64,000 nt of DNA from the NCBI RefSeq assembly GCF_900101095.1, contig NZ_FNFM01000012.1, forward strand, positions 62,001 to 126,000, given 5' to 3'. The translations under genes and the position numbers were made by a program. Positions 1 through 9,314 of this stretch are shown one piece after another (positions within the stretch are counted from its first letter, which is position 1; the number at the start of each line of letters is the position of its first letter). The notes under the pieces were generated by a model. That model saw only the letters and a program-made list of their open reading frames with translations, ran no database searches and was not told where the DNA came from. The DNA is from Actinopolyspora mzabensis. GTDB lineage: Bacteria > Actinomycetota > Actinomycetes > Mycobacteriales > Pseudonocardiaceae.

Positions 1-192
1 ATCTTGGAGCTCCGACGCGATGGCACGAGCACGGGTGTCGAGCTCGATACTGGTCAGAGTCCGTCCCGGATACTCGCCCGAGGACAAAAACCGCAACGCC
101 ACCGCGTGTGGATCGCGCTCGGCGCGCTCGCGGACGACGTCGAGCAGCGATTCGGACCGGCTGTGCGGGGCACGCTCGGCGAGGTCGGTCAT
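1..192 (-). CDS. Fatty-acyl-AMP ligase (FAAL), N-terminal part, cut by window edge
   Basis: The minus strand encodes 64 residues starting MTDLAERAPHSRSESLLD and running off the left edge without a stop. The stretch RFLSSGEYPGRTLTSIELD is typical of the N-terminus of adenylate-forming enzymes of the FAAL type, which activate fatty acids as acyl-AMP for loading onto a carrier protein. A GGGAG sequence lies about 6 nt before the ATG. The catalytic core and the FAAL-specific insertion are outside the window, so a fatty acyl-CoA ligase or another AMP-binding enzyme is not excluded. It is divergent from the methyltransferase at 459 and probably marks the near edge of a lipopeptide or polyketide cluster continuing to the left. 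Confidence 0.7.
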   Translation of the reverse strand, partial: MTDLAERAPHSRSESLLDVVRERAERDPHAVALRFLSSGEYPGRTLTSIELDTRARAIASELQD

Positions 193-458
193 GCTCGGCT
201 CCCGTATGGCGGTCTCGACGATGGAACGGAGGGGCGCTTCGGCAGGCAATGCTCGCGGCGACTCCACGAGCCGCGACATCCCCGAAAAGACCGCCCGAAC
301 GATCACACGTGGCACTACCCGTCCAGTCACCTCAATTCGGCGGTAGCCGACCGGGCACCTCACTCGGAGGAACCAGAAGATGACTCTGATTCGTGGCAAC
401 GATCGGCACCATGAGGCCTCGCGGCCGAATCACCGTGAGCCTGCGAGAGAGGGACCCG

Positions 459-1472
459 ATGGTCGAGCAAACACCGCAGACGGAAGCGTCCGCGCAATGG
501 ATCGTGGAGGACCTGTGGGCGGCTCGCGAAGCACAAGTCCTGATCGCAGGCACGGAACTGGACGTGTTCACCCACATCTTCCGAGGGGCACGGAGCGCCG
601 AGGAGGTGGCGACGGCGATCGGCGCCCCCATACGCGGTGTAGAACGCCTGCTGGATGCGCTTGTCGGGATCGAGTACCTGGACAAGCAAGACGGTCACTA
701 CACACTTTCGTCCTTGGCGGACAAGCTGCTGGTGCGCGACAAGGACACCTACGTCGGCGAGATGGTGCAGGAGATGAAGCTGTTGTGGAACAGCTGGTCC
801 AACCTGACCGAGGTGATCCGCACCGGGGAGCCGGTGCAACCGTGGGACGACGAGGAGACCGGACGACGGTTGTTCCCCAGCCTGGTGCGGGCGCTGTTTC
901 CGATGAGCTGGGGATCGGCTCGTGCCGCTGCCGCGGTCGCGCTGGAAGCCGACGATCGCGTCGAACGGATCCTCGACGTGGCCGCGGGATCGGGTGTGTG
1001 GTCAATCGCGTTCGCCCAGCAGGCACCGAGAGCGCGCGTGACCACGGTGGACTACTCCGAAGTGACCCCGCTGACCCGTGAATTCGCCGAACGTTACGGA
1101 GTTGTCGACAGGTTCGATCACATCGAGGGCAACCTGCGTGACATCGACTTCGGAGCGGAAAGCTACGACCTGGCGATACTGGGCTACATCCTGCAGACCG
1201 AAGGTGAGGACCGCAGCAGGGATCTGCTGGAGAAGTGCCACCGCGCGCTGCGTCCCGGTGGTCGGTTGTTGATCGCCGAGATGATCCCCGATGACGATCG
1301 AACGGGGCCCGCGGCGCCACTGGTGTACGCCATGGACATGGTGCTCTACACCGAGCACGGAGACGTTTTCACCATGACGCAATACCGGGACTGGCTGCAC
1401 ACCGCGGGTTTCCGGCGAGTCGAGACGATCGACATACCCGCCCCTTGGCCACTGGTCCTCGCCACCAAATAG
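459..1472 (+). CDS. SAM-dependent O-methyltransferase, dimerisation-domain family
   Basis: The product is 337 residues. An N-terminal winged-helix dimerisation region (about residues 10-90, with LWAAREAQVLIAGTELDVF) precedes a Rossmann methyltransferase domain. The SAM-binding glycine motif is visible as DVAAGSGVWSIAFA, followed by an acidic residue at the end of strand 2 (TTVDYSE) and the post-motif LRPGGRLLIAEM. These proteins resemble small-molecule O- or C-methyltransferases of secondary metabolism. I chose the ATG at 459 because GAGAGGG lies just upstream; an in-frame ATG at 393 has no good site. It lies 52 nt before the flavin reductase/dioxygenase ORF and is probably co-transcribed with it, so its substrate may be a chlorinated kynurenine or the final product. 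The acceptor cannot be read from the sequence. Confidence 0.82.
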   Translation: MVEQTPQTEASAQWIVEDLWAAREAQVLIAGTELDVFTHIFRGARSAEEVATAIGAPIRGVERLLDALVGIEYLDKQDGHYTLSSLADKLLVRDKDTYVGEMVQEMKLLWNSWSNLTEVIRTGEPVQPWDDEETGRRLFPSLVRALFPMSWGSARAAAAVALEADDRVERILDVAAGSGVWSIAFAQQAPRARVTTVDYSEVTPLTREFAERYGVVDRFDHIEGNLRDIDFGAESYDLAILGYILQTEGEDRSRDLLEKCHRALRPGGRLLIAEMIPDDDRTGPAAPLVYAMDMVLYTEHGDVFTMTQYRDWLHTAGFRRVETIDIPAPWPLVLATK

Positions 1473-1524
1473 CTCCGCGTTCGCCGGTGTCCACGGCGGA
1501 GCGCAGGATCGAGGTGTTCCACCG

Positions 1525-2892
1525 ATGACGAACGCGCCGAGCGGTCACGAGGACATGCCGGTGACCATCGATGTGTTCAAAGCTCTCATGAGCACTTTCC
1601 CGAGCGGTGTCGCCGTGGTAACGACCACCGACGTCGACGGCACTCCGCACGGTCTGACCTGTACGTCGCTCTGCGGAATCACCGACGAACCGTCCACCTT
1701 GGGCGTCTGTCTGCACAACCGTGGCGCGACGGTGCGGGCGGTGCGACGGCGCGAGAGGTTCGCGGTCAACTTTCTGCACACCGGTGGTCGTGCGGCTGCC
1801 GAACACTTCGCTTCGGGAGCGCCCGACCGCTTCGAACGCGTCGATTGGAGGACCGGCGAGTACGGTTTACCGCTTCTTCCGACGGCCTCGCACGGAATCG
1901 CCGAGTGCCGGGTTCGCGATCTGATCGTTTTCGGCAACCACACGATCGCGTTGGGCGAGATCGCGTCGGCCACCACCGGGACGGAAACGCCGCTCTTGTA
2001 CGGTGCTCGGCGGTTCGCGGCGTGGCCCCCGGATTCGGCGGAGCGATCTCTCAAGGACGCAAGCCAGCCAACATCGACCGACCCCACCACTCAATCTGAG
2101 GAGCGCCAAGTGTCCCGGAGCGTGGTTCCACCGGACCTGAACAGTCGTACCGAGCAAACCGAAGGCGCCAGTTACAAGAGCGTGCTACGACTCGACGAGC
2201 TGCTGCGCTTGCAGCAAGCTCCGGTAGAGCACGACGAGTTGATGTTCGTCGTGGTCCACCAGGTACACGAACTGTGGTTCAAGCTGATGCTGCACGAACT
2301 CGAAGAAGTCCGCGACCTGCTGTTGGACGACCGTGCCGAAGCCGCCACTCACCTGGTCGAACGATGCGCGACGATCCAGAACGTACTCGTCAGCCAGTGG
2401 TCGGTGCTCGATACCATGCTCCCCGCCGATTTCCTCGCATTTCGCGACGGTCTCGAAGGCGGCAGCGGCTTCGAGTCCGTACAGTACCGCGAGATCGAAT
2501 ATCTCGCCGGCTTGAAGGACGAAACCTATTTGGAGCGAGCCGTGCTCACCGACGAGGAGCACAAACAGCTACGGACCCGGCTTGAGGAGCAAAGCGTTCG
2601 TGAGGTCTTCCTGGACCTGGTGCGACGAAGGGGATTCGGTTCACCGGCGGAGTTGAGCAGCAATCGCTACCGCGACCAACCCGCTCGGGATTGGGACCTG
2701 CTGCGGTTGGCCGAGAAGCTGCTGGATCTGGATCAAGCGTTCGCGACCTGGCGAGCCCGGCACACGCTGACGGTGGAACGTCAGATCGGCACCAAATCCG
2801 GCACAGGGGGTTCCTCGGGAGTGAACTACTTGCGATCGAGGATGAACGCACGATTGTTTCCCGAACTTTGGGAGCTGCGTGGCGAGCTGTGA
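1525..2892 (+). CDS. Flavin reductase fused to tryptophan 2,3-dioxygenase
   Basis: One 455-residue frame carries two complete enzymes. Residues about 12-170 are a flavin reductase of the type that supplies FADH2 to flavin-dependent halogenases (FPSGVAVVTTTDVDG near the start, ALGEIASA and RRFAAWPP near the end). Residues about 205-455 are a heme tryptophan 2,3-dioxygenase: distal histidine region VVHQVHELWFKLML, proximal histidine region WRARHTLTVERQIG and substrate loop GTGGSSGVNYL. The dioxygenase half is of normal length. The joining segment (about residues 172-200) is rich in Ser, Thr, Gln and Asp and has lower third-position GC. A GTG at 2110 preceded by GAGGAG could start a free 260-residue dioxygenase. 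With the halogenase at 3187-4728, the expected product is chloro-N-formylkynurenine. No formamidase is seen in the window. Confidence 0.88.
   Translation: MTNAPSGHEDMPVTIDVFKALMSTFPSGVAVVTTTDVDGTPHGLTCTSLCGITDEPSTLGVCLHNRGATVRAVRRRERFAVNFLHTGGRAAAEHFASGAPDRFERVDWRTGEYGLPLLPTASHGIAECRVRDLIVFGNHTIALGEIASATTGTETPLLYGARRFAAWPPDSAERSLKDASQPTSTDPTTQSEERQVSRSVVPPDLNSRTEQTEGASYKSVLRLDELLRLQQAPVEHDELMFVVVHQVHELWFKLMLHELEEVRDLLLDDRAEAATHLVERCATIQNVLVSQWSVLDTMLPADFLAFRDGLEGGSGFESVQYREIEYLAGLKDETYLERAVLTDEEHKQLRTRLEEQSVREVFLDLVRRRGFGSPAELSSNRYRDQPARDWDLLRLAEKLLDLDQAFATWRARHTLTVERQIGTKSGTGGSSGVNYLRSRMNARLFPELWELRGEL
2098..2112 (+). promoter_or_regulatory. Possible internal ribosome binding site and GTG start
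   Basis: GAGGAG at 2098-2103 stands six bases before an in-frame GTG at 2110 inside the reductase-dioxygenase ORF. Starting there gives a 260-residue protein, the usual length of a bacterial tryptophan 2,3-dioxygenase. This suggests either that two separate genes became joined by loss of a stop codon, or that both a fused and a free dioxygenase are made. Confidence 0.5.
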
Positions 2893-3034
2893 AGCTCGCT
2901 CGCATCTCACGACGGCCAGCTGTTTTCCCACGCGTCGATCCAGCCACGGCTGTTGTCTTCTTCCCGTTGCGGTACTACGAACCGCACGGTCGCAGCCGTC
3001 GATCGGCGCCGAAAACCGGACCGACAAGCCCGCC

Positions 3035-3061
3035 GGTCAGCGCCGAGTTCCGGCGCTGACC
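3035..3061. terminator. Bidirectional hairpin between convergent genes
   Basis: GGTCAGCGCCG and CGGCGCTGACC form a perfect 11-bp stem with a 5-nt loop. There is no U tract, as is usual for actinomycete terminators. It lies between the 3' ends of the reductase-dioxygenase ORF and the halogenase. Confidence 0.75.
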
Positions 3062-3186
3062 ATCGCGCACTACGCACTGGTCCCGTTCGAAGCGGTTATC
3101 GGGCCGCCGTCGTCGACGTCGCATGCGAAGCAGAACTCACTCCACCGCTCGACCCCGCATGCTGCTCGGGCACCGGAGGACGAGGA

Positions 3187-4728
3187 TCAACGCATGCCGG
3201 CCAGGTACTCGTACTGGCTGGGCAACGTATTCACGAGCTGTTCGGCCTCGGCCCTGACCCGTTCGAACTCGGCGCGCGCAGCGGCGCTGTCCAGACCACG
3301 CAGCGCCGGATGCGGATAACGCGGCCGTTGCCCCAACCCCAGCAGCATGACAGCGTAGGAGTAGGGCTCGAAACCGTGGTAATCGGCGATCACGGAGCCC
3401 GAGTCGGGCAACCGGGACTTCCACAACTCCATGCGATCGGCCATCCCCGGCGGCAGCGGCAACTCGTTGATCGCCTTCCAGTACGGGGTGTCCTCACGGC
3501 GCGCTGCCCGATAATGCAACACCAGAAATTCACGCACGCCGTCGAAGCAACCGGCCATCAACCTGTTGTAGTTGTCCCGTAGTGCTGGACTGCGATCAGG
3601 GCCCGGGAAGTGGCGCACGAGCTGTTCGATCCCGTACTGGATAAAGAAGATCCCGGTGGATTCCAACGGTTCCACGAACCCTCCGGAGAGTCCGATGGCC
3701 ACACAGTTGCGCATCCAGAAGCGCTCGTTGCGTCCGACGCGCATTCGGATGTGATTGGCTTCCACCTCGTCGGCTGCCGGCCCCACATGGGCCCGCAAGT
3801 CGGACTCCGCCTGCTCCGGAGTGGTGAACTCCGAGGAGTAGACGTATCCGGTCCCGATGCGATCGTACAGCGGGATCGTCCAGGCCCATCCCGCGTCCAT
3901 TGCCGTGGCGGTGGTGTACGGAGCGATGCCCTGGCTCTCCCCATCGACCGGAACCCGCAGCGCCACCGCACGGTCGTTCGGCAACACGTCCTGAAACGAC
4001 TCGAACCGCGCGCCCAGCGTCTGGTTGATCAGTAATCCACGGAAACCGGTGCAGTCGATGAACAGATCACCGTAGATGTCACCGTGCTGCTTCGTCACGA
4101 GATGATCGATCGCACCGGTCTCGTCCTGGACCACACGCTCGACATCGTCGAGCACTCGGTGAACCCCGCGTCGCATCCCGAGATCAGCCAGGAAGTGGGC
4201 GAGCAGCGTGGCGTCGAAGTGATACGCGTACGGAAACTGGGTGTCGGCTCCGTTCATGACTTCGCGTCGAGGTAGATCGCCGCCGTCGTGCAGGTTCCGG
4301 TCGAACAGTGCCCCGCCGGCTCTGTTCGGAGAGCGTCGAGCTTCGCAGAGAGCGGCCAGTACGAAGCTTTCCCGATCGAACGCCTCGGATCCCACTTTCA
4401 GCCACCAGTCGGCGAGAGTACATCCGTCGACGTGGCGGGGACGTTCGAAGGGATGGTAGAAGTGCTCGTTCTCCCCACCCCAGTTCTGGAATCGTATGGC
4501 GAGTTTGTAAGCGGCACTACAATGCGGCATCCACTCGTGTTCGCGTAGACCGATATAGTGAAAGAAGTGGCGAACAGTGCTGAAGGTAGCCTCGCCCACT
4601 CCCACGGTCGGCAGATTCGGTGATTCGACGAGTGAGACGGTTACTTGATCACCAAAGGTCGCGTTGAGGTAGGTGGCTGTCATCCACCCGGCAGTGCCAC
4701 CACCGACGATCACCACGTTGTCGACCAT
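3187..4728 (-). CDS. Flavin-dependent tryptophan halogenase
   Basis: The 513-residue product matches the usual length of FADH2-dependent tryptophan halogenases. The FAD-binding GGGTAGW motif is at residues about 8-14, the catalytic lysine lies in AAYKLAIRFQNW, the halogenase signature WxWxIP is present as GWAWTIPL, and the glutamate region FVEPLESTGI is conserved. The enzyme uses reduced flavin, oxygen and chloride (or bromide) to halogenate the indole ring; the ring position cannot be decided by eye. Start ATG at 4728 is supported by GGAAAGG upstream; an earlier in-frame ATG at 4866 gives an unrelated basic extension. The reductase that should feed it is encoded convergently at 1525. In the taromycin pathway a halogenase, a reductase and a tryptophan dioxygenase make L-4-chlorokynurenine, so the same logic is likely here. 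Confidence 0.95.
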   Translation of the reverse strand: MVDNVVIVGGGTAGWMTATYLNATFGDQVTVSLVESPNLPTVGVGEATFSTVRHFFHYIGLREHEWMPHCSAAYKLAIRFQNWGGENEHFYHPFERPRHVDGCTLADWWLKVGSEAFDRESFVLAALCEARRSPNRAGGALFDRNLHDGGDLPRREVMNGADTQFPYAYHFDATLLAHFLADLGMRRGVHRVLDDVERVVQDETGAIDHLVTKQHGDIYGDLFIDCTGFRGLLINQTLGARFESFQDVLPNDRAVALRVPVDGESQGIAPYTTATAMDAGWAWTIPLYDRIGTGYVYSSEFTTPEQAESDLRAHVGPAADEVEANHIRMRVGRNERFWMRNCVAIGLSGGFVEPLESTGIFFIQYGIEQLVRHFPGPDRSPALRDNYNRLMAGCFDGVREFLVLHYRAARREDTPYWKAINELPLPPGMADRMELWKSRLPDSGSVIADYHGFEPYSYAVMLLGLGQRPRYPHPALRGLDSAAARAEFERVRAEAEQLVNTLPSQYEYLAGMR

Positions 4729-5077
4729 GCTCAGCCTTTCCACTATACGCCGTTCCCACGAGGACGCGGGCGAACCGAGCCACGCGACGTTCACGCGGCT
4801 GGAACGCGACGTCGCACGTTCCGCGAAGCACGGAACCGGTGCCCACACACCGGCACACTGCCGCACAATGCCCGCGGATCCCGCTACCCGAGCGGACGGA
4901 TAGGGCGGGCATGTCCGAGCGCGCCGGATGGAGTAGCCGTTCGGGGGGTGTCAACCACACCGGCGGGCATCCCCGAATCGGCGCCGAAGCGGGGATCGGC
5001 ACGAAGCGCTCGGTGTGGTCGACTCGTAACCATCCGGCAAAAACGGAACGACAATTTTCCGATGGGAGGTGGAGCTG
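4729..5077. other. Intergenic region upstream of the halogenase
   Basis: About 350 nt with no convincing ORF on either strand. It should contain the halogenase promoter and holds the hairpin at 4969-4996 that probably ends the LuxR-family gene. Confidence 0.5.
4969..4996 (-). terminator. Hairpin downstream of LuxR-family gene
   Basis: ATCCCCG and CGGGGAT form the outer stem, followed by a two-base mismatch and a 5-bp inner stem TCGGC/GCCGA. It lies about 80 nt beyond the stop of the regulator at 5078 and ahead of the halogenase start, so it should separate their transcripts. Confidence 0.55.
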
Positions 5078-5791
5078 TTACTTCGCCGTGCCCAACAAGT
5101 TGTCGCGCACCGCGAGCGCGGCGGCCGTGGTTCTGTTCGGGCAGTGCAGCTTGGCCAGAATGTTGGCGACATGACGTTTGGCACCGTGATCGGATATCGA
5201 TAATCGGCGGGCTATCTGCTTGTTGCTCAGCCCCTCGGTGAGCAGTTCCAGTACCTGCATTTCACGTGCGGTCAGTGGTGCCGTTTGGTTTTTGCCCGAC
5301 TGGTCCTGGCCGTTCCGTGACAAGAGCTCACGGGCGAGGCTTGTGGGCAGCGGCATCTCGCCCCTGCGCAGCAATGTGAAAGCGTGTTCGAGATGATCAG
5401 CCGTGAGACCGTTCTCCGCGAGATAGCCGTCGACGTTGGGCCCCGATGGTGCGATCAGATTCGGATCCGACGAGGACAGCAGCACGAGAACGGCGATGCC
5501 CTGGTCCCGAGCTTCGGAGATGGTCGCACAGATGAGGTCGATATCGCGGTCCTGCGGTGGCGGCACGATCAGCACATCCGGCTCCGCAGCCGCCAACCTC
5601 GTGCGCAGCTCCCGTGGCTCGTGGCTGGTGTCGATCAGCCCGGTACAGGAGACGTTGCGCAACATCGTCGTAAGCCCGCACCGCACCATCTCATCGGGAT
5701 GGAAGACCATGACGGTCAGACTGGCACCATCGTTGAGGGTGGCCGCGGCACTTGATGATCGCCCGTCGTACTGTTCGAACATCTCTTTCAC
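5078..5791 (-). CDS. LuxR/NarL-family regulator with degenerate receiver domain
   Basis: The 237-residue protein has an N-terminal receiver-like domain (about residues 25-140) and a C-terminal LuxR helix-turn-helix (about residues 168-232, LTAREMQVLELLTEGLSN then KQIARRLSISDHGAKRHV). At the usual phosphoacceptor position after the third strand the sequence is PDVLIVPPPQ, without the expected aspartate, so it is probably not controlled by ordinary phosphorylation. Such atypical regulators often act as pathway-specific activators in antibiotic clusters and may respond to end products. The start is a GTG with GGGGA upstream; an ATG three codons later is possible. It points toward the halogenase, making it the likely regulator of the chlorotryptophan genes; that role is inferred. 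Confidence 0.85.
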   Translation of the reverse strand: MKEMFEQYDGRSSSAAATLNDGASLTVMVFHPDEMVRCGLTTMLRNVSCTGLIDTSHEPRELRTRLAAAEPDVLIVPPPQDRDIDLICATISEARDQGIAVLVLLSSSDPNLIAPSGPNVDGYLAENGLTADHLEHAFTLLRRGEMPLPTSLARELLSRNGQDQSGKNQTAPLTAREMQVLELLTEGLSNKQIARRLSISDHGAKRHVANILAKLHCPNRTTAAALAVRDNLLGTAK

Positions 5792-6114
5792 AGCAGTTCC
5801 CCGTTCGTACCGCCGACGACCCGCCGGATCGGTGGGCGTCGCTTGGACTCTTGCTCAACCGTGAGTCGGTCCTGCCTGTCGTGCCGGCCGGCCACGTTGA
5901 CAGGCTGCGTCTGGTGAGATCGATCTCAGCCGCCCGTTCGCTGGAGGGAATCGGGCTGATCGGTGGCGAGTGCGGGTATGGTTCGCGCACCAACCAACGC
6001 TTGAACGTGTTCACGGCCATCTCGTAGATCATGTGATCGTTTCACTGTCGAACGGAATGGTCGGTGACCACATTTTCTGTTGTGGATAGTTGGTCTCCGC
6101 CGCTTGGCTGACGG
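5792..6114. other. Intergenic region, no gene recognised
   Basis: About 320 nt between the glycosidase 3' end and the start of the LuxR-family gene. Minus-strand reading frames here have no recognisable domain. It should carry the regulator promoter. Confidence 0.4.
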
Positions 6115-8028
6115 TCACGTGACGTTCGGCTGTCGCCTGCCGTACAGGTACTCGACCACTGCCACCGATGCCGCTGCCGCCCAAGCCTGCGGTGAGCACG
6201 CCGAAGGGTACGGCAATGGAGGTCCTCCGTCCTCGTTTCCGGTGCCTGAGAACAGTTCCGGCATCCGATAATTGAACCGACCGGCCGCTCGCACCAGGTT
6301 GTTGGCGAGTTCTCGCGCCTGCCCGTGGTGCCCTTCGGCCGCCAGTCCCAGCACCGCGATCGCCGTGTCGTGCGGCCACACGCTGCCGCAGTGGTATCCG
6401 AACGGGTTGTAAGCCTCGGTTCGAGCTGACAGCGTTCGAAGTCCATATCCGCTGCACATACCGGGGTCGGCTAGTTGCCGAGCCACCGCTTCAGACTCCC
6501 CGCGGTCCAGCATTCCGGTGCCCAGCAGGTGAGCCATGTTGGAGGCGGGGCCTGCAACCGGCTGCTTGTCCCCGTCCAGCGCGATGGCCGGGTAATGGCC
6601 GAACTCGTCGTCGATCCAGAACTCACGGCGGAAGCGCCGCCGCAGCTCGCCTGCCCACTCGCGCCAGGGTTGTCCGTGCGAGCCGAATCGGTCGAGCAAC
6701 TCGGCCCCGGAAATCGCCGCCGCGTACGTGTACCCCTGTACTTCGCACAACGCCAACGGTTGGCACGCCAACGAACCGTCGGGCCATTTCACGCCGTCCG
6801 GTGAGTCCTTCCAGCCCTTGTTGACCAAACCGGCCCGCGCCCCCCGCGAGTACTCGCAGAAACCGTCACCGTCAGGGTCACCGAACTCGGCGATCCAGTC
6901 CAGCGCAGCACGCAACGCGGGAAGCAACTCTCGAATCTGCTCCTCGGGCAGCCCCGCGCGCCATGCCTCGTGCAACAAACACACCCAAAGCTGGGTCGCA
7001 TCGATCGTGCCGTAGTACAACAACGGCAACCTCTGCGACGTGGGACCTGAGAGGTCCATCGGTGTGCGCCGCAGTTCGTGCGGTATCTTGCCCGGCTGCT
7101 CCTCGGTGCTCGGATCTTCCTCGCTACCTTGCCGTGCTGCCAGTGCCCGCAAGGTGTCACCCGCCAGCTCCAGGTTCGCCGGGAGGAGGAACCGCGCGGC
7201 CCATATGGCGTCCCGTCCGAAAAGAGTGAGAAACCACGGACTTCCCGCCGCCAGAAAAACGCGATCCCCGTCGGAGTCCGACAGCGTGAGCCCTTCCAGA
7301 TCGTCGAGACTTCTGCGCAGCAGCATCGCCGAACGATCGTCGGCGTGCTCGATCCGCGGTCCGCGCAGTTGCATCGCCGGAGTGGGGTGATGTGGCGAGA
7401 AGGCATGGCAGGTGTCGGTTTCCTCGTGCTCGACTCCCAATCGCAACGACCACTGCCCGTGTTCGGTCAGCCGGACCGTCCACTGCCACTCGACTCGATC
7501 GTGGTTGACGGAGATCGCGGAAGCGGCACGATCAGGACGCAGGCGGATACGGCTGTCGTCAAAGGACCACTCGGCACCTCGCCCCGTCAGCCACGGTGAC
7601 AGGTAGCCCCGACTTCGACCACTCTTGACCCGCGACATGCTCTCGAAGTCGCACGCAGTGAAAACGCTGAGCGTGATCGTGCGCGACGACGGCGACGAGT
7701 TGTACAGCGTCCATGTCTCGGTCAACGAATCCGAACCGGTATCGCGATCGTGGACGTAGTACAGCGTCGGGTCAGGGGCATCGTCGACGTCCTCGACCAC
7801 CACACCGTAGAAGCTGATCTCCCCGGAACCACGCCGGGTACTGCCGAGGTGGTGCAGACAGCCGTCGGCGACGTCGTACTCGAGTCCGCGGAGGATACGT
7901 CGATCGTGGCGATAGGCACCTTGAGTCCCGGTCGGACGTATCTGACCATCGTTTTCACTTATGGTAACTACGGGTGCGCATACAGCGGTGGTCAACTCGT
8001 GCAGTTGTGGGGACCGCTTATCAGACAC
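6115..8028 (-). CDS. Glycogen-debranching (amylo-alpha-1,6-glucosidase) family protein
   Basis: The 637-residue protein has an N-terminal beta-rich debranching-type domain (about residues 15-215, including YRHDRRILRGLEY and YYVHDRDTGSDSL) and a C-terminal (alpha/alpha)6 barrel. Conserved barrel segments include WFLTLFGRDAIWAARF, NKGWKDSPDGVKWPDG, QGYTYAA and NPFGYHCGSVWPHDTAIA. Enzymes of this architecture hydrolyse alpha-glucosidic bonds in glycogen-like polymers or small glucosides; the precise substrate is uncertain. No signal peptide is seen, so it is likely cytoplasmic. It is divergent from the LacI-family gene at 8310 with 281 nt between them, which suggests control by that sugar-responsive repressor. 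Confidence 0.85.
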   Translation of the reverse strand: MSDKRSPQLHELTTAVCAPVVTISENDGQIRPTGTQGAYRHDRRILRGLEYDVADGCLHHLGSTRRGSGEISFYGVVVEDVDDAPDPTLYYVHDRDTGSDSLTETWTLYNSSPSSRTITLSVFTACDFESMSRVKSGRSRGYLSPWLTGRGAEWSFDDSRIRLRPDRAASAISVNHDRVEWQWTVRLTEHGQWSLRLGVEHEETDTCHAFSPHHPTPAMQLRGPRIEHADDRSAMLLRRSLDDLEGLTLSDSDGDRVFLAAGSPWFLTLFGRDAIWAARFLLPANLELAGDTLRALAARQGSEEDPSTEEQPGKIPHELRRTPMDLSGPTSQRLPLLYYGTIDATQLWVCLLHEAWRAGLPEEQIRELLPALRAALDWIAEFGDPDGDGFCEYSRGARAGLVNKGWKDSPDGVKWPDGSLACQPLALCEVQGYTYAAAISGAELLDRFGSHGQPWREWAGELRRRFRREFWIDDEFGHYPAIALDGDKQPVAGPASNMAHLLGTGMLDRGESEAVARQLADPGMCSGYGLRTLSARTEAYNPFGYHCGSVWPHDTAIAVLGLAAEGHHGQARELANNLVRAAGRFNYRMPELFSGTGNEDGGPPLPYPSACSPQAWAAAASVAVVEYLYGRRQPNVT

Positions 8029-8309
8029 CTGCTCCCACCTGTTCCGCGTGCTCGATCCGGTGCGCTCTCAGCGGGTGTGGCGACCACTACGAGAGACAGT
8101 CGTGCGAGCTCACGCCGTCGTAATCGTACGCATGCCACCCCAACGGGCGCTGTTCAACATCCGGGTGACGAAGGACAACGCTGTTGTGACCTTCATGTGA
8201 ACGTTCAAACCGCCAAGCATGTACTGTTGTGAGCTACTCGACGAGATCGGAGTCTCGCACGAGCCCTCGATCCGACGCCAGAGCGCCTTGAAAGGTATTC
8301 GCGATCCAC

Positions 8310-9314
8310 ATGCACCGCGAGACAACTTTGGAAGAGGTCGCCGAACGTGCCGGTGTGTCGCGGCAAACCGTGTCCAACGCCCTGAACGCTCCGCACAAGC
8401 TCCATGAACGAACACTCGGCCACGTACGTGAAGTGATAGCGGAACTGGGATATCGTCCCGATGCTCGGGCACGTGGCCTACGTACCAACACGAGTTCTCT
8501 GATCGGCTACTGCCTGCCGTCCGACGATGTGGCTGGTTCCGTCAACGCCGTCATGGACCAGTATCTGCACGCGCTGAGCGTGGCGATAGAACGAACCGGC
8601 AGGCACCTGCTGTTGTTCACCCGTGCTACGCACGGTTCTGAGCTGGAGGTCTACCGTGAACTGCTGGCCGCGCACTCTGTGGACGGGTTTTTGCTCAGTG
8701 ACATTCGTACTCACGACCCGAGACCACAATGGTTGGCCGAGCGTGCGGTGCCGTTCGTATCGTTCGGCCGCACCGGAGACGAGCAGCAACGCGGGCCGTG
8801 GGTGGACGTGGACGGAGCCGCCGGGGCAGACCAAGCCGTTCGACACCTGGTGCACGGCGGCCACACACGCATCGGTTTCCTCGGATTGCCTGCGGGAAAC
8901 CGCGTAGGCGACGATCGCGCGCGAGGCTGGTTGCGTGCCTGCGCGGCCGCAGGACTGGGCGACTGCGAGCGAATGCTCGTCCACTGCGCGGACGAGCACC
9001 ACGACAACGGCGATTCCGCTCGGCGTGCCCTGGCACTGCCTGAGTCCCCCACCGCGCTGGTCGCGGCGAACGATGCCCTCGCGCTCGGCTCCTATGCGGC
9101 CTGCGCGGAACGCGGTCTCCGGATCGGAGAGGACATCGCGGTGATCGGTTTCGACGACAGCCCCACGGCCACCAAGGTCCACCCCGCGTTGACGAGCCTT
9201 CGTCAACCCGTCGAACACATAGCACAACGCCTCGTCGCACGACTGGACTCAGCTGAGCCGGGCGGTGAACTGTACGAACCGGAACTCGTGGTACGGGCCA
9301 GCAGTGCCCCCTGA
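8310..9314 (+). CDS. LacI-family transcriptional regulator
   Basis: The 334-residue protein begins with a LacI helix-turn-helix (TLEEVAERAGVSRQTVSNAL, residues 5-24) followed by the hinge region and a periplasmic-binding-protein-like ligand domain to the C-terminus (PWVDVDG, GHTRIGFLG, ALVAANDALALG, VIGFDDSPTA). Full length is normal for the family. It is divergent from the debranching-type glycosidase at 6115-8028 and probably represses it in the absence of a sugar inducer. I did not find a clear LacI-type palindrome in the 281-nt divergent region. Confidence 0.92.
   Translation: MHRETTLEEVAERAGVSRQTVSNALNAPHKLHERTLGHVREVIAELGYRPDARARGLRTNTSSLIGYCLPSDDVAGSVNAVMDQYLHALSVAIERTGRHLLLFTRATHGSELEVYRELLAAHSVDGFLLSDIRTHDPRPQWLAERAVPFVSFGRTGDEQQRGPWVDVDGAAGADQAVRHLVHGGHTRIGFLGLPAGNRVGDDRARGWLRACAAAGLGDCERMLVHCADEHHDNGDSARRALALPESPTALVAANDALALGSYAACAERGLRIGEDIAVIGFDDSPTATKVHPALTSLRQPVEHIAQRLVARLDSAEPGGELYEPELVVRASSAP

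What the first reader, a model, noticed from the sequence alone, without database searches (positions are those of the whole stretch)
1525..4728. Flavin reductase-tryptophan dioxygenase fusion beside a tryptophan halogenase
The sequence shows one uninterrupted frame with a halogenase-type flavin reductase followed by a complete tryptophan 2,3-dioxygenase, and a flavin-dependent tryptophan halogenase convergent to it. Known chlorokynurenine routes (taromycin) use separate proteins for these three steps. A fusion of the enzyme that feeds the halogenase with the enzyme that consumes chlorotryptophan is, as far as I know, unusual and would couple halogenation to ring opening.
Basis: partly seen in the sequence, partly recalled or inferred. 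Interest (0 to 1): 0.8.

Follow-up and report, generated by a model that had tools for sequence, protein, structure and literature searches.

The report
Reductase-dioxygenase fusion in a chlorination cluster
One actinobacterium carries a single open gene joining two enzymes, a flavin reductase and a tryptophan ring-opening dioxygenase, that three relatives keep as separate genes, next to a tryptophan-chlorinating enzyme and a peptide-polyketide assembly line.

Summary
ORF 1525-2892 (+, 455 aa) joins a flavin reductase domain (residues 22-167) to a tryptophan 2,3-dioxygenase domain (209-455); a tryptophan halogenase (3187-4728, -) is convergent. In four partly overlapping draws of 390, 397, 394 and 396 genomes, only the window's genome shows a match across both halves among the rows listed. 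Three relatives (Amycolatopsis iheyensis, Amycolatopsis sp. CA-126428, Saccharopolyspora elongata) keep the two genes apart: halogenase beside dioxygenase, reductase beside a FAAL-like loading gene. The window's homologue of that loading gene begins about 1.3 kb from the fusion and heads a hybrid NRPS-PKS cluster. So the fusion arose inside a known kind of chlorotryptophan-to-chlorokynurenine gene set. "Couples halogenation to ring opening" is not shown: the halogenase remains a separate protein. Cautions: one assembly only; the dioxygenase keeps a weakened ribosome-binding site and GTG start at 2110; an out-of-frame TGA stands just before them and codon statistics in the linker are inconclusive; reductase signature motifs are altered (xxPP to DEPS, GDH to GNH). 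Verdict: new variant of a known kind, moderate interest.

The parts
1..192 (-). 5' end of a large NRPS gene whose N-terminus is a FAAL-like acyl-AMP ligase followed by a carrier domain (carrier read by eye and from homologues); it continues left of the window (C19:56064-62399). Start proposed at 192 by comparison with relatives; the open frame runs to 399
   Evidence: Contig ORFs; domains; FAAL models best but under their cut-offs, e.g. 442.8 against 775 bits; relatives' N-terminus MTDLA; their carrier domains
393..1472 (+). SAM methyltransferase (Methyltransf_2 with dimerisation domain), 52 bp upstream of the fusion ORF, same strand
   Evidence: Pfam; PDB hits include SibL, E 1.7e-20, behind others such as RedM, 1.8e-27; gap
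1525..2892 (+). Flavin reductase-tryptophan 2,3-dioxygenase fusion ORF, 455 aa
1588..2025 (+). Flavin reductase domain (residues 22-167); family motifs altered: TDEPS in place of (S/T/C)xxPP, GNH in place of GDH (the His is kept)
   Evidence: Pfam; alignment; residues; motif definition PMC11795597, passages
2026..2148 (+). Linker (residues 168-208); holds the dioxygenase's former or alternative start
   Evidence: weak and undecided coding signal
2098..2112 (+). GAGGAG-CGCCAA-GTG: ribosome-binding-site-like GAGGAG (2098-2103) and in-frame GTG (2110-2112), lining up with the start of the standalone relatives (GAGGAGGTT...GTG). An out-of-frame TGA lies at 2097-2099
2149..2889 (+). Tryptophan 2,3-dioxygenase domain (residues 209-455); F241, H245, F303, R307, H413, T427 and loop GTGGS 426-430
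   Evidence: loop rule from the PMC12312684 abstract
3187..4728 (-). Flavin-dependent tryptophan halogenase, 513 aa, convergent; GGGTAG, GWAWTIP and EPLEST present
5078..5791 (-). LuxR-type regulator, homologous to the LuxR beside the S. elongata pair (42%) and to one near the A. iheyensis FAAL (38%)

Best explanation
The 455-residue ORF is a genuine fusion, formed when the reductase and dioxygenase genes of a recurring chlorotryptophan gene set were brought together and came to read through in one frame. The free-standing halogenase chlorinates free L-tryptophan at C5 or C6 with FADH2 from the reductase domain. The dioxygenase domain opens the chlorotryptophan to chloro-N-formylkynurenine, which a formamidase encoded elsewhere deformylates. 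The chlorinated aromatic unit, possibly after kynureninase cleavage to chloroanthranilate, is activated by the FAAL-like loading domain and extended by the neighbouring NRPS-PKS line with its two heterocyclisation modules. Shown by computation: the open frame, both domains, conserved residues, and the co-occurrence of halogenase, dioxygenase, reductase and FAAL homologues in three relatives. Inferred: translation as one chain, enzyme activities, order of steps, FAAL substrate, and any benefit of the tether.
For: Both domains exceed Pfam cut-offs. The fusion frame is best in 36 of 36 windows of 25 codons. The fused TDO forms a 99/97-supported clade with the three halogenase-paired standalone TDOs. 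Halogenase 64-65% and TDO 61.5-64% identical in these relatives. Their best reductase match (50-53%) lies within about 1 kb of their best match (53-55%) to the window cluster's loading domain, in 3 of 3 genomes. The TDO has the GTGGS loop, not MarE's SLGGR. The TDO's own Shine-Dalgarno match is -7.8 kcal/mol here against -12.8 in 3 of 3 relatives, while the reductase start has -11.5, as expected if translation now starts upstream. Mycemycin's MymC, a TDO, opens 5-chlorotryptophan in vitro (PMC5867642, passages).
Against: One assembly only. The TDO start signal is not gone. In 4 of 27 short windows around the linker, the frame that ends in the out-of-frame TGA is marginally ahead. Reductase signature motifs are altered, so the reductase may be weak. 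Neither formamidase nor kynureninase was recognised by Pfam among the cluster proteins scanned, though a thioesterase-type alpha/beta hydrolase is there; candidates lie on another contig. No adenylation code clearly matches kynurenine (read by eye, recalled rules), so where the chlorinated unit enters is a guess.
Confidence: 0.52

Rival explanations
1. Mixed output: the ORF is open, but ribosomes also start at GTG 2110, so free dioxygenase is made as well as, or more than, the fusion; the tether is incidental.
For: GAGGAG and GTG at 2098-2112 line up with the start of the standalone relatives. Its Shine-Dalgarno energy is reached by only 33 of 375 start-like codons on the + strand of bases 21-9000, itself included.
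Against: The signal is weaker than in the relatives (-7.8 against -12.8). At least five of the other in-frame start-like codons of the ORF score as well: 1525 itself, 1573, and three close to the stop codon (2821, 2830, 2854).
Confidence: 0.2
2. Assembly or sequencing error: two ordinary adjacent genes appear fused because of a small indel in the linker.
For: An out-of-frame TGA (2097-2099) stands immediately before the dioxygenase's ribosome-binding site, the usual layout of a two-gene operon. In 4 of 27 windows of 15 codons (starts 2002, 2029, 2038, 2047) the frame ending in that TGA is marginally ahead. Only one assembly is available.
Against: The lead is about 0.14 per codon or less. Runs of three windows with the true frame not best occur at 73 of 3297 places in 11 ordinary genes of the contig, and a run of five lies inside the reductase domain itself. 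At 25 codons the fusion frame is best throughout. The three relatives have no TGA at the aligned place, so it may be chance.
Confidence: 0.15
3. The fused reductase mainly serves the dioxygenase: it reduces its heme (or supplies electrons for a side reaction), and another cellular reductase feeds the halogenase.
For: The tether is to the dioxygenase, not the halogenase. TDO and IDO need an initiating reduction of ferric heme (PMC5350241, passage). In mycemycin the reductase gene myeO was dispensable (PMC5867642, passage).
Against: Only a single initiating reduction is thought necessary (same passage). The relatives carry the two genes apart. The reductase is of the halogenase-partner type: best solved match ThdF, and four of the six aligned relatives lie beside halogenases.
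Confidence: 0.1
4. The TDO-like half does not make N-formylkynurenine but a 2-oxindole or other product, as its relative MarE does.
For: The superfamily includes MarE and PrnB (passages). The score is under the TIGR03036 equivalog cut-off.
Against: The GTGGS loop is canonical. The best PDB match is a TDO at 4e-52, while the two MarE entries match at about 5e-7. Five of five relatives tested miss the cut-off as well.
Confidence: 0.05

Closest known systems
Taromycin L-4-chlorokynurenine pathway (Tar13-Tar16; gene roles beyond Tar14 recalled)
   Same: Trp halogenase of the same structural group (Tar14 is recalled to be 6nsd, matched at 1.9e-190), then conversion of free chlorotryptophan to chlorokynurenine for an NRPS (PMC12615548, passages)
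   Different: Halogenase, reductase and dioxygenase separate and a formamidase in the cluster (recalled); a different NRPS product
Mycemycin clusters mym/mye (PMC5867642, passages and table)
   Same: PyrH-like halogenase, TDO (MymC) shown to open 5-chlorotryptophan, reductase MymO, a methyltransferase named as SibL homologue
   Different: Separate genes (MymC 269 aa, MymO 175 aa); the product is a dibenzoxazepinone
Halogenase-TDO and FAAL-reductase gene pairs of Amycolatopsis iheyensis, Amycolatopsis sp. CA-126428 and Saccharopolyspora elongata (found here)
   Same: Homologues of the same four proteins; their dioxygenases form one clade with the fused one
   Different: Reductase and dioxygenase unfused, about 23 kb apart in the two Amycolatopsis and on different contigs in S. 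elongata; halogenase and TDO divergent rather than convergent; ClpP paralogues in the loci read for A. iheyensis and S. elongata
Single-component halogenase AetF (PMC10306068, search listing only)
   Same: Another way to bring reductase function into one polypeptide of a halogenation system (recalled)
   Different: There the reductase function lies in the halogenase; here it is joined to the next enzyme of the pathway

Membership tests
Tryptophan 2,3-dioxygenase (PF03301 family) | PF03301 above gathering cut-off | tested here: met
   193.3 bits against 34.9
Tryptophan 2,3-dioxygenase (PF03301 family) | Distal His, substrate Arg, heme-ligand His, Thr of the GTGGS loop (residue roles in X. campestris TDO recalled) | tested here: met
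   H245, R307, H413, T427; Tyr113 of X. campestris TDO is Phe303 here
Tryptophan 2,3-dioxygenase (PF03301 family) | Active-site loop GTGGS, as opposed to SLGGR of MarE | tested here: met
   Residues 426-430 GTGGS; rule from the abstract of PMC12312684
Tryptophan 2,3-dioxygenase (PF03301 family) | Makes N-formylkynurenine | not testable with these tools
   Needs an enzyme assay
TIGR03036 equivalog (narrower TDO model of NCBIfam) | Curated cut-off 390.7 bits | tested here: not met
   234 bits for the whole ORF, 237.1 for the half alone; 5 of 5 standalone relatives also miss it, 218.9-240.2. I do not file it under this equivalog
HpaC-like short-chain flavin reductase | PF01613 above cut-off | tested here: met
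   108.7 bits against 27
HpaC-like short-chain flavin reductase | (S/T/C)xxPP and GDH motifs | tested here: not met
   TDEPS and GNH here; the six aligned relatives keep PP and the D and H of GDH; the His that contacts nicotinamide in ThdF is kept here. I therefore call it a PF01613 homologue that would work like such a reductase, not a proven typical member
Flavin-dependent tryptophan halogenase | GxGxxG, GWxWxIP motifs and EPLEST region (recalled) | tested here: met
   GGGTAG at 9, GWAWTIP at 280, EPLEST at 353; PF04820 472.5 bits
Flavin-dependent tryptophan halogenase | Regiochemistry (C5 or C6) | tested here: inconclusive
   Top three PDB matches are Trp-5, Trp-6 and Trp-5 halogenases with 687, 677 and 674 bits
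Chlorokynurenine pathway, taromycin type | Halogenase, reductase, TDO and formamidase in one cluster (formamidase recalled) | tested here: inconclusive
   First three present; no PF04199 among the cluster proteins scanned, the one PF04199 match of the genome is on contig C9; a thioesterase-type alpha/beta hydrolase in the cluster could in principle act
Separate-protein chlorokynurenine gene set | Reductase and dioxygenase in separate frames | tested here: not met
   One open frame in this assembly

The most novel reading that the evidence does not exclude
The tether is functional: a flavin reductase domain tuned by its DEPS and GNH changes, fused to a dioxygenase, forms a mixed oligomer that docks the free halogenase, so that NADH oxidation, chlorination and ring opening occur in one transient complex; or the reductase keeps the dioxygenase heme ferrous, a self-activating TDO. 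Neither design is known to me for heme tryptophan dioxygenases.
Probability: 0.14. Interest if true: 0.65.

Novelty: new variant of a known kind. Interest (0 to 1): 0.43.

Why it matters
If translated as one chain, it would be, as far as the searches here reach (and the ten literature searches), the first natural reductase-TDO fusion, and a candidate tool for making chloro-N-formylkynurenine from tryptophan. It offers a direct test of whether flavin transfer in two-component halogenases can be shaped by tethering the reductase to a downstream enzyme. The recurring FAAL/reductase/halogenase/TDO set in four Pseudonocardiaceae also marks clusters for which I found no product in the literature searches listed.

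Tried and rejected
Considered and set aside: (1) the TDO half as a MarE-type monooxygenase (loop GTGGS and PDB ranking speak against it). (2) The window TDO as the housekeeping enzyme: a second TDO, 36% and 47% identical in its two aligned pieces, is on contig C15, and frames of similar length and distance lie in congeners G001 and G005. (3) Frameshift artefact: the corrected codon scan neither supports nor excludes it. (4) Kynurenine-specific adenylation domain: codes read by eye look Cys-like for the two Cy modules (about DLWNWSSIW and DLWNLSLVW), Gly-like for the last (DILQACLVW) and unassigned for the third (DVFSIAMVH); code rules are recalled, so this is weak. (5) ClpP-based self-resistance as suggested by relatives: best ClpP match on contig bases 1-126000 of 229,522 is E 0.54.

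Corrected on checking: one search's training set held one gene out of frame (40 stops). replace it. The mended result is less favourable in the linker, so I raised the artefact rival from 0.08 to 0.15 and lowered the best explanation from 0.58 to 0.52, the novel case from 0.15 to 0.14 and the interest from 0.45 to 0.43.

Led nowhere: structure prediction was not accepted, so no fold evidence is given. Alignment A1 mixed a reductase row with dioxygenases and was discarded. The DUF6875 family search rang nowhere, so it says nothing. H1 of the plasmid search carried no annotation. They cover open-licence PMC papers only, list at most 20 each, and term searches can miss it.
Full report
WHAT IS THERE. 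The window is bases 62001-126000 of contig C19 (229,522 bases) in a 5.0 Mb, 24-contig genome. The species is unknown to me. ORF 1525-2892 on the plus strand, 455 codons, is open. Pfam finds a flavin reductase domain at residues 22-167 (E 3.9e-31) and a tryptophan 2,3-dioxygenase in two stretches, the best at 209-361 (E 9.9e-57). The tryptophan halogenase (PF04820, E 1.9e-141) lies on the other strand, convergent, stop at 3187 and ATG at 4728, 294 bp from the fusion. Upstream on the same strand, 52 bp away, is a methyltransferase (393-1472); its PDB matches include SibL at 1.7e-20 but stronger ones to others, such as RedM at 1.8e-27. A LuxR regulator lies at 5078-5791.

QUALITY OF THE TWO HALVES. 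The dioxygenase half matches TDO 2nox at 4e-52. It keeps the positions that I recall as catalytic or ligand residues: H245, R307, H413 and T427, with Phe303 where X. campestris has Tyr. It carries the loop GTGGS, which the abstract of PMC12312684 gives as the TDO type, against SLGGR in the oxindole-forming MarE. The two MarE structures (codes confirmed in passages of PMC11904535) match at about 5e-7 only. The score is below the TIGR03036 equivalog cut-off, 234 against 390.7 bits; 5 of 5 standalone relatives tested miss it too, at 218.9-240.2 bits, so this does not single out the fusion. The reductase half matches ThdF, the partner of the Trp halogenase Thal, best (8.5e-44). Of the two motifs given for the HpaC-like family (PMC11795597, passages), it has TDEPS for (S/T/C)xxPP and GNH for GDH, while the six aligned relatives keep the PP and the D and H of GDH. 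The histidine that contacts nicotinamide in ThdF is kept. This leaves reductase activity open.

IS THE FUSION REAL? My first codon-usage scan had one training gene out of frame. Redone with the 10 in-frame genes, the fusion frame scores best in 36 of 36 windows of 25 codons, and in 23 of 27 windows of 15 codons around the linker. The four exceptions (starts 2002, 2029, 2038, 2047) all favour, by about 0.14 per codon or less, the frame that ends in TGA 2097-2099. As calibration, the true frame is not best in 212 of 3319 such windows of 11 other genes of the contig, and runs of three occur at 73 of 3297 places; in the fusion ORF it is not best in 13 of 147 windows, including a run of five inside the reductase domain. 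So the linker is undecided: a read-through linker, an older intergenic stretch, or a sequencing indel would all fit. Inside it lies GAGGAG-CGCCAA-GTG (2098-2112), which lines up with GAGGAGGTT...GTG at the start of the standalone dioxygenases in 3 of 3 relatives. The match to the 16S tail is -7.8 kcal/mol here, -12.8 in the three relatives and -11.5 at the reductase's ATG. I read this as an ancestral start that has weakened since translation came to begin upstream. It proves nothing alone: 33 of 375 start-like codons score as well, itself included, and so do at least five other in-frame codons of the ORF. No second assembly of the species was reachable, so a sequencing error cannot be excluded.

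HOW RARE IS IT? The 455-residue protein was searched in four draws: 390 family genomes (E up to 1e-30), 397 of the order (1e-60), 394 of the class (1e-60) and 396 of the phylum (1e-62). The draws overlap in part, mostly only the best 4 candidates per genome were scored, and one search did not list all its matches. Among listed rows, one, the window's own, spans both halves. In the others, dioxygenase matches begin at residue 149 or later (a few reach a little way into the reductase domain's end) and reductase matches end by residue 195. Of 194 plasmid records with a match (72,556 searched), none covered 80% of the query in one place. The scan of 84,980 species genomes with six short peptide patterns gave 61 candidate stretches and 5 relatives: four match the dioxygenase half and one the reductase half. 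That scan reaches close relatives only and may leave out the window's own species. Of 99 loci held, 68 had a dioxygenase match (several are copies of one place) and 5 of these a reductase match, all five the window's own place. Genomes outside Actinomycetota were reached only.

WHERE IT CAME FROM. In A. iheyensis (L015/L053), Amycolatopsis sp. CA-126428 (L016/L054) and S. elongata (L017/L052) a halogenase 64-65% identical and a dioxygenase 61.5-64% identical stand head to head, without a reductase match in those fetched stretches. In all three genomes the best reductase match (50-53%) lies within about 1 kb of the best match (53-55%) to the window cluster's loading domain. In the two Amycolatopsis the reductase and dioxygenase share a contig, about 23 kb apart; in S. 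elongata they are on different contigs. A tree of 52 dioxygenases puts the fused one with these three at 99/97 support. So homologues of the same set exist unfused in relatives, and the fusion, if real, is a derived state in the window's lineage.

THE SURROUNDING CLUSTER. Left of the window, C19:35468-62399 on the minus strand carries, from right to left: FAAL-ACP-Cy-A-Ox-PCP; KS-AT-ACP-Cy-A-PCP; C-A-PCP; C-A-PCP-reductase; FAD monooxygenase; acyl-CoA dehydrogenase; thioesterase; methyltransferase; DHA2-type efflux pump. Ox is the nitroreductase-like domain; Cy is my assignment from D-x4-D-x2-S motifs at 910 and 1182 of the two proteins; FAAL rests on NCBIfam models that score best but under their cut-offs (442.8 against 775), and the ACP behind it on my reading and on the homologues. 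The right-hand border is taken at the LuxR gene, since a glycogen-debranching-type enzyme and a LacI regulator follow. One kynureninase above cut-off and one PF04199 gene (a family that includes kynurenine formamidases, recalled) are on contig C9, 281 kb apart, so the later kynurenine steps, if needed, would be borrowed from elsewhere in the genome.

MOST LIKELY MECHANISM. Free L-tryptophan is chlorinated by the halogenase with FADH2 from the fused reductase, and the fused dioxygenase opens the ring. There are precedents: MymC converts 5-chlorotryptophan to 5-chloro-N-formylkynurenine (PMC5867642, passages), and Tar14 chlorinates free tryptophan, which is then converted to chlorokynurenine (PMC12615548, passages). 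What the fusion adds is unknown. It ties FADH2 supply to the second enzyme, not to the halogenase. In one mycemycin strain the cluster's reductase gene was dispensable, so a neutral fusion is a fair null hypothesis. The alternative that the reductase serves the dioxygenase heme is weakened by the statement that dioxygenases need only a single initiating reduction (PMC5350241, passage).

VERDICT. This is a new domain fusion inside a known kind of pathway, not a new pathway. The strongest remaining doubts are the single assembly, the undecided linker, and whether one chain is what the cell makes.

Noticed in passing
L024 880-2271; L021 811-2280; also L023, L026 (congeners G007, G001, G003, G005): Four congeners carry a different dioxygenase fusion: Pfam gives DUF6875 followed by Trp_dioxygenase in L024, and the DUF6875 part is 59-62% identical in the other three loci. 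In L021 and L024 it follows an arylamine N-acetyltransferase-like gene (my reading). The four dioxygenase parts form one long-branched clade apart from the window's.
   Followed up: partly
L092 774-1346 and 1395-2087; L088 5114-5722; L017 9882-10454: ClpP paralogues lie near the FAAL/reductase or halogenase/TDO genes of A. iheyensis and S. elongata (PF00574), a hint that those clusters could make ClpP-targeting compounds; no credible ClpP match on the window's contig bases 1-126000 (best E 0.54).
   Followed up: partly
window 1-192 and C19:35468-62399 to its left: Hybrid NRPS-PKS line with two heterocyclisation-type modules, one oxidase domain and a terminal reductase domain: perhaps a thiazole-bearing peptide aldehyde or alcohol with an unknown starter (product is my inference).
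   Followed up: partly
G000 contig C15, bases 8249-8824: Second tryptophan dioxygenase in the genome, 36% and 47% identical to the fused one in two aligned pieces; frames of similar length and distance in G001 and G005 suggest a housekeeping copy.
   Followed up: partly
L022 1498-3487: In congener G002 a flavin reductase is followed by a halogenase 42% identical to the window's over 408 aligned residues: a separate halogenation locus in the same genus.
   Followed up: no
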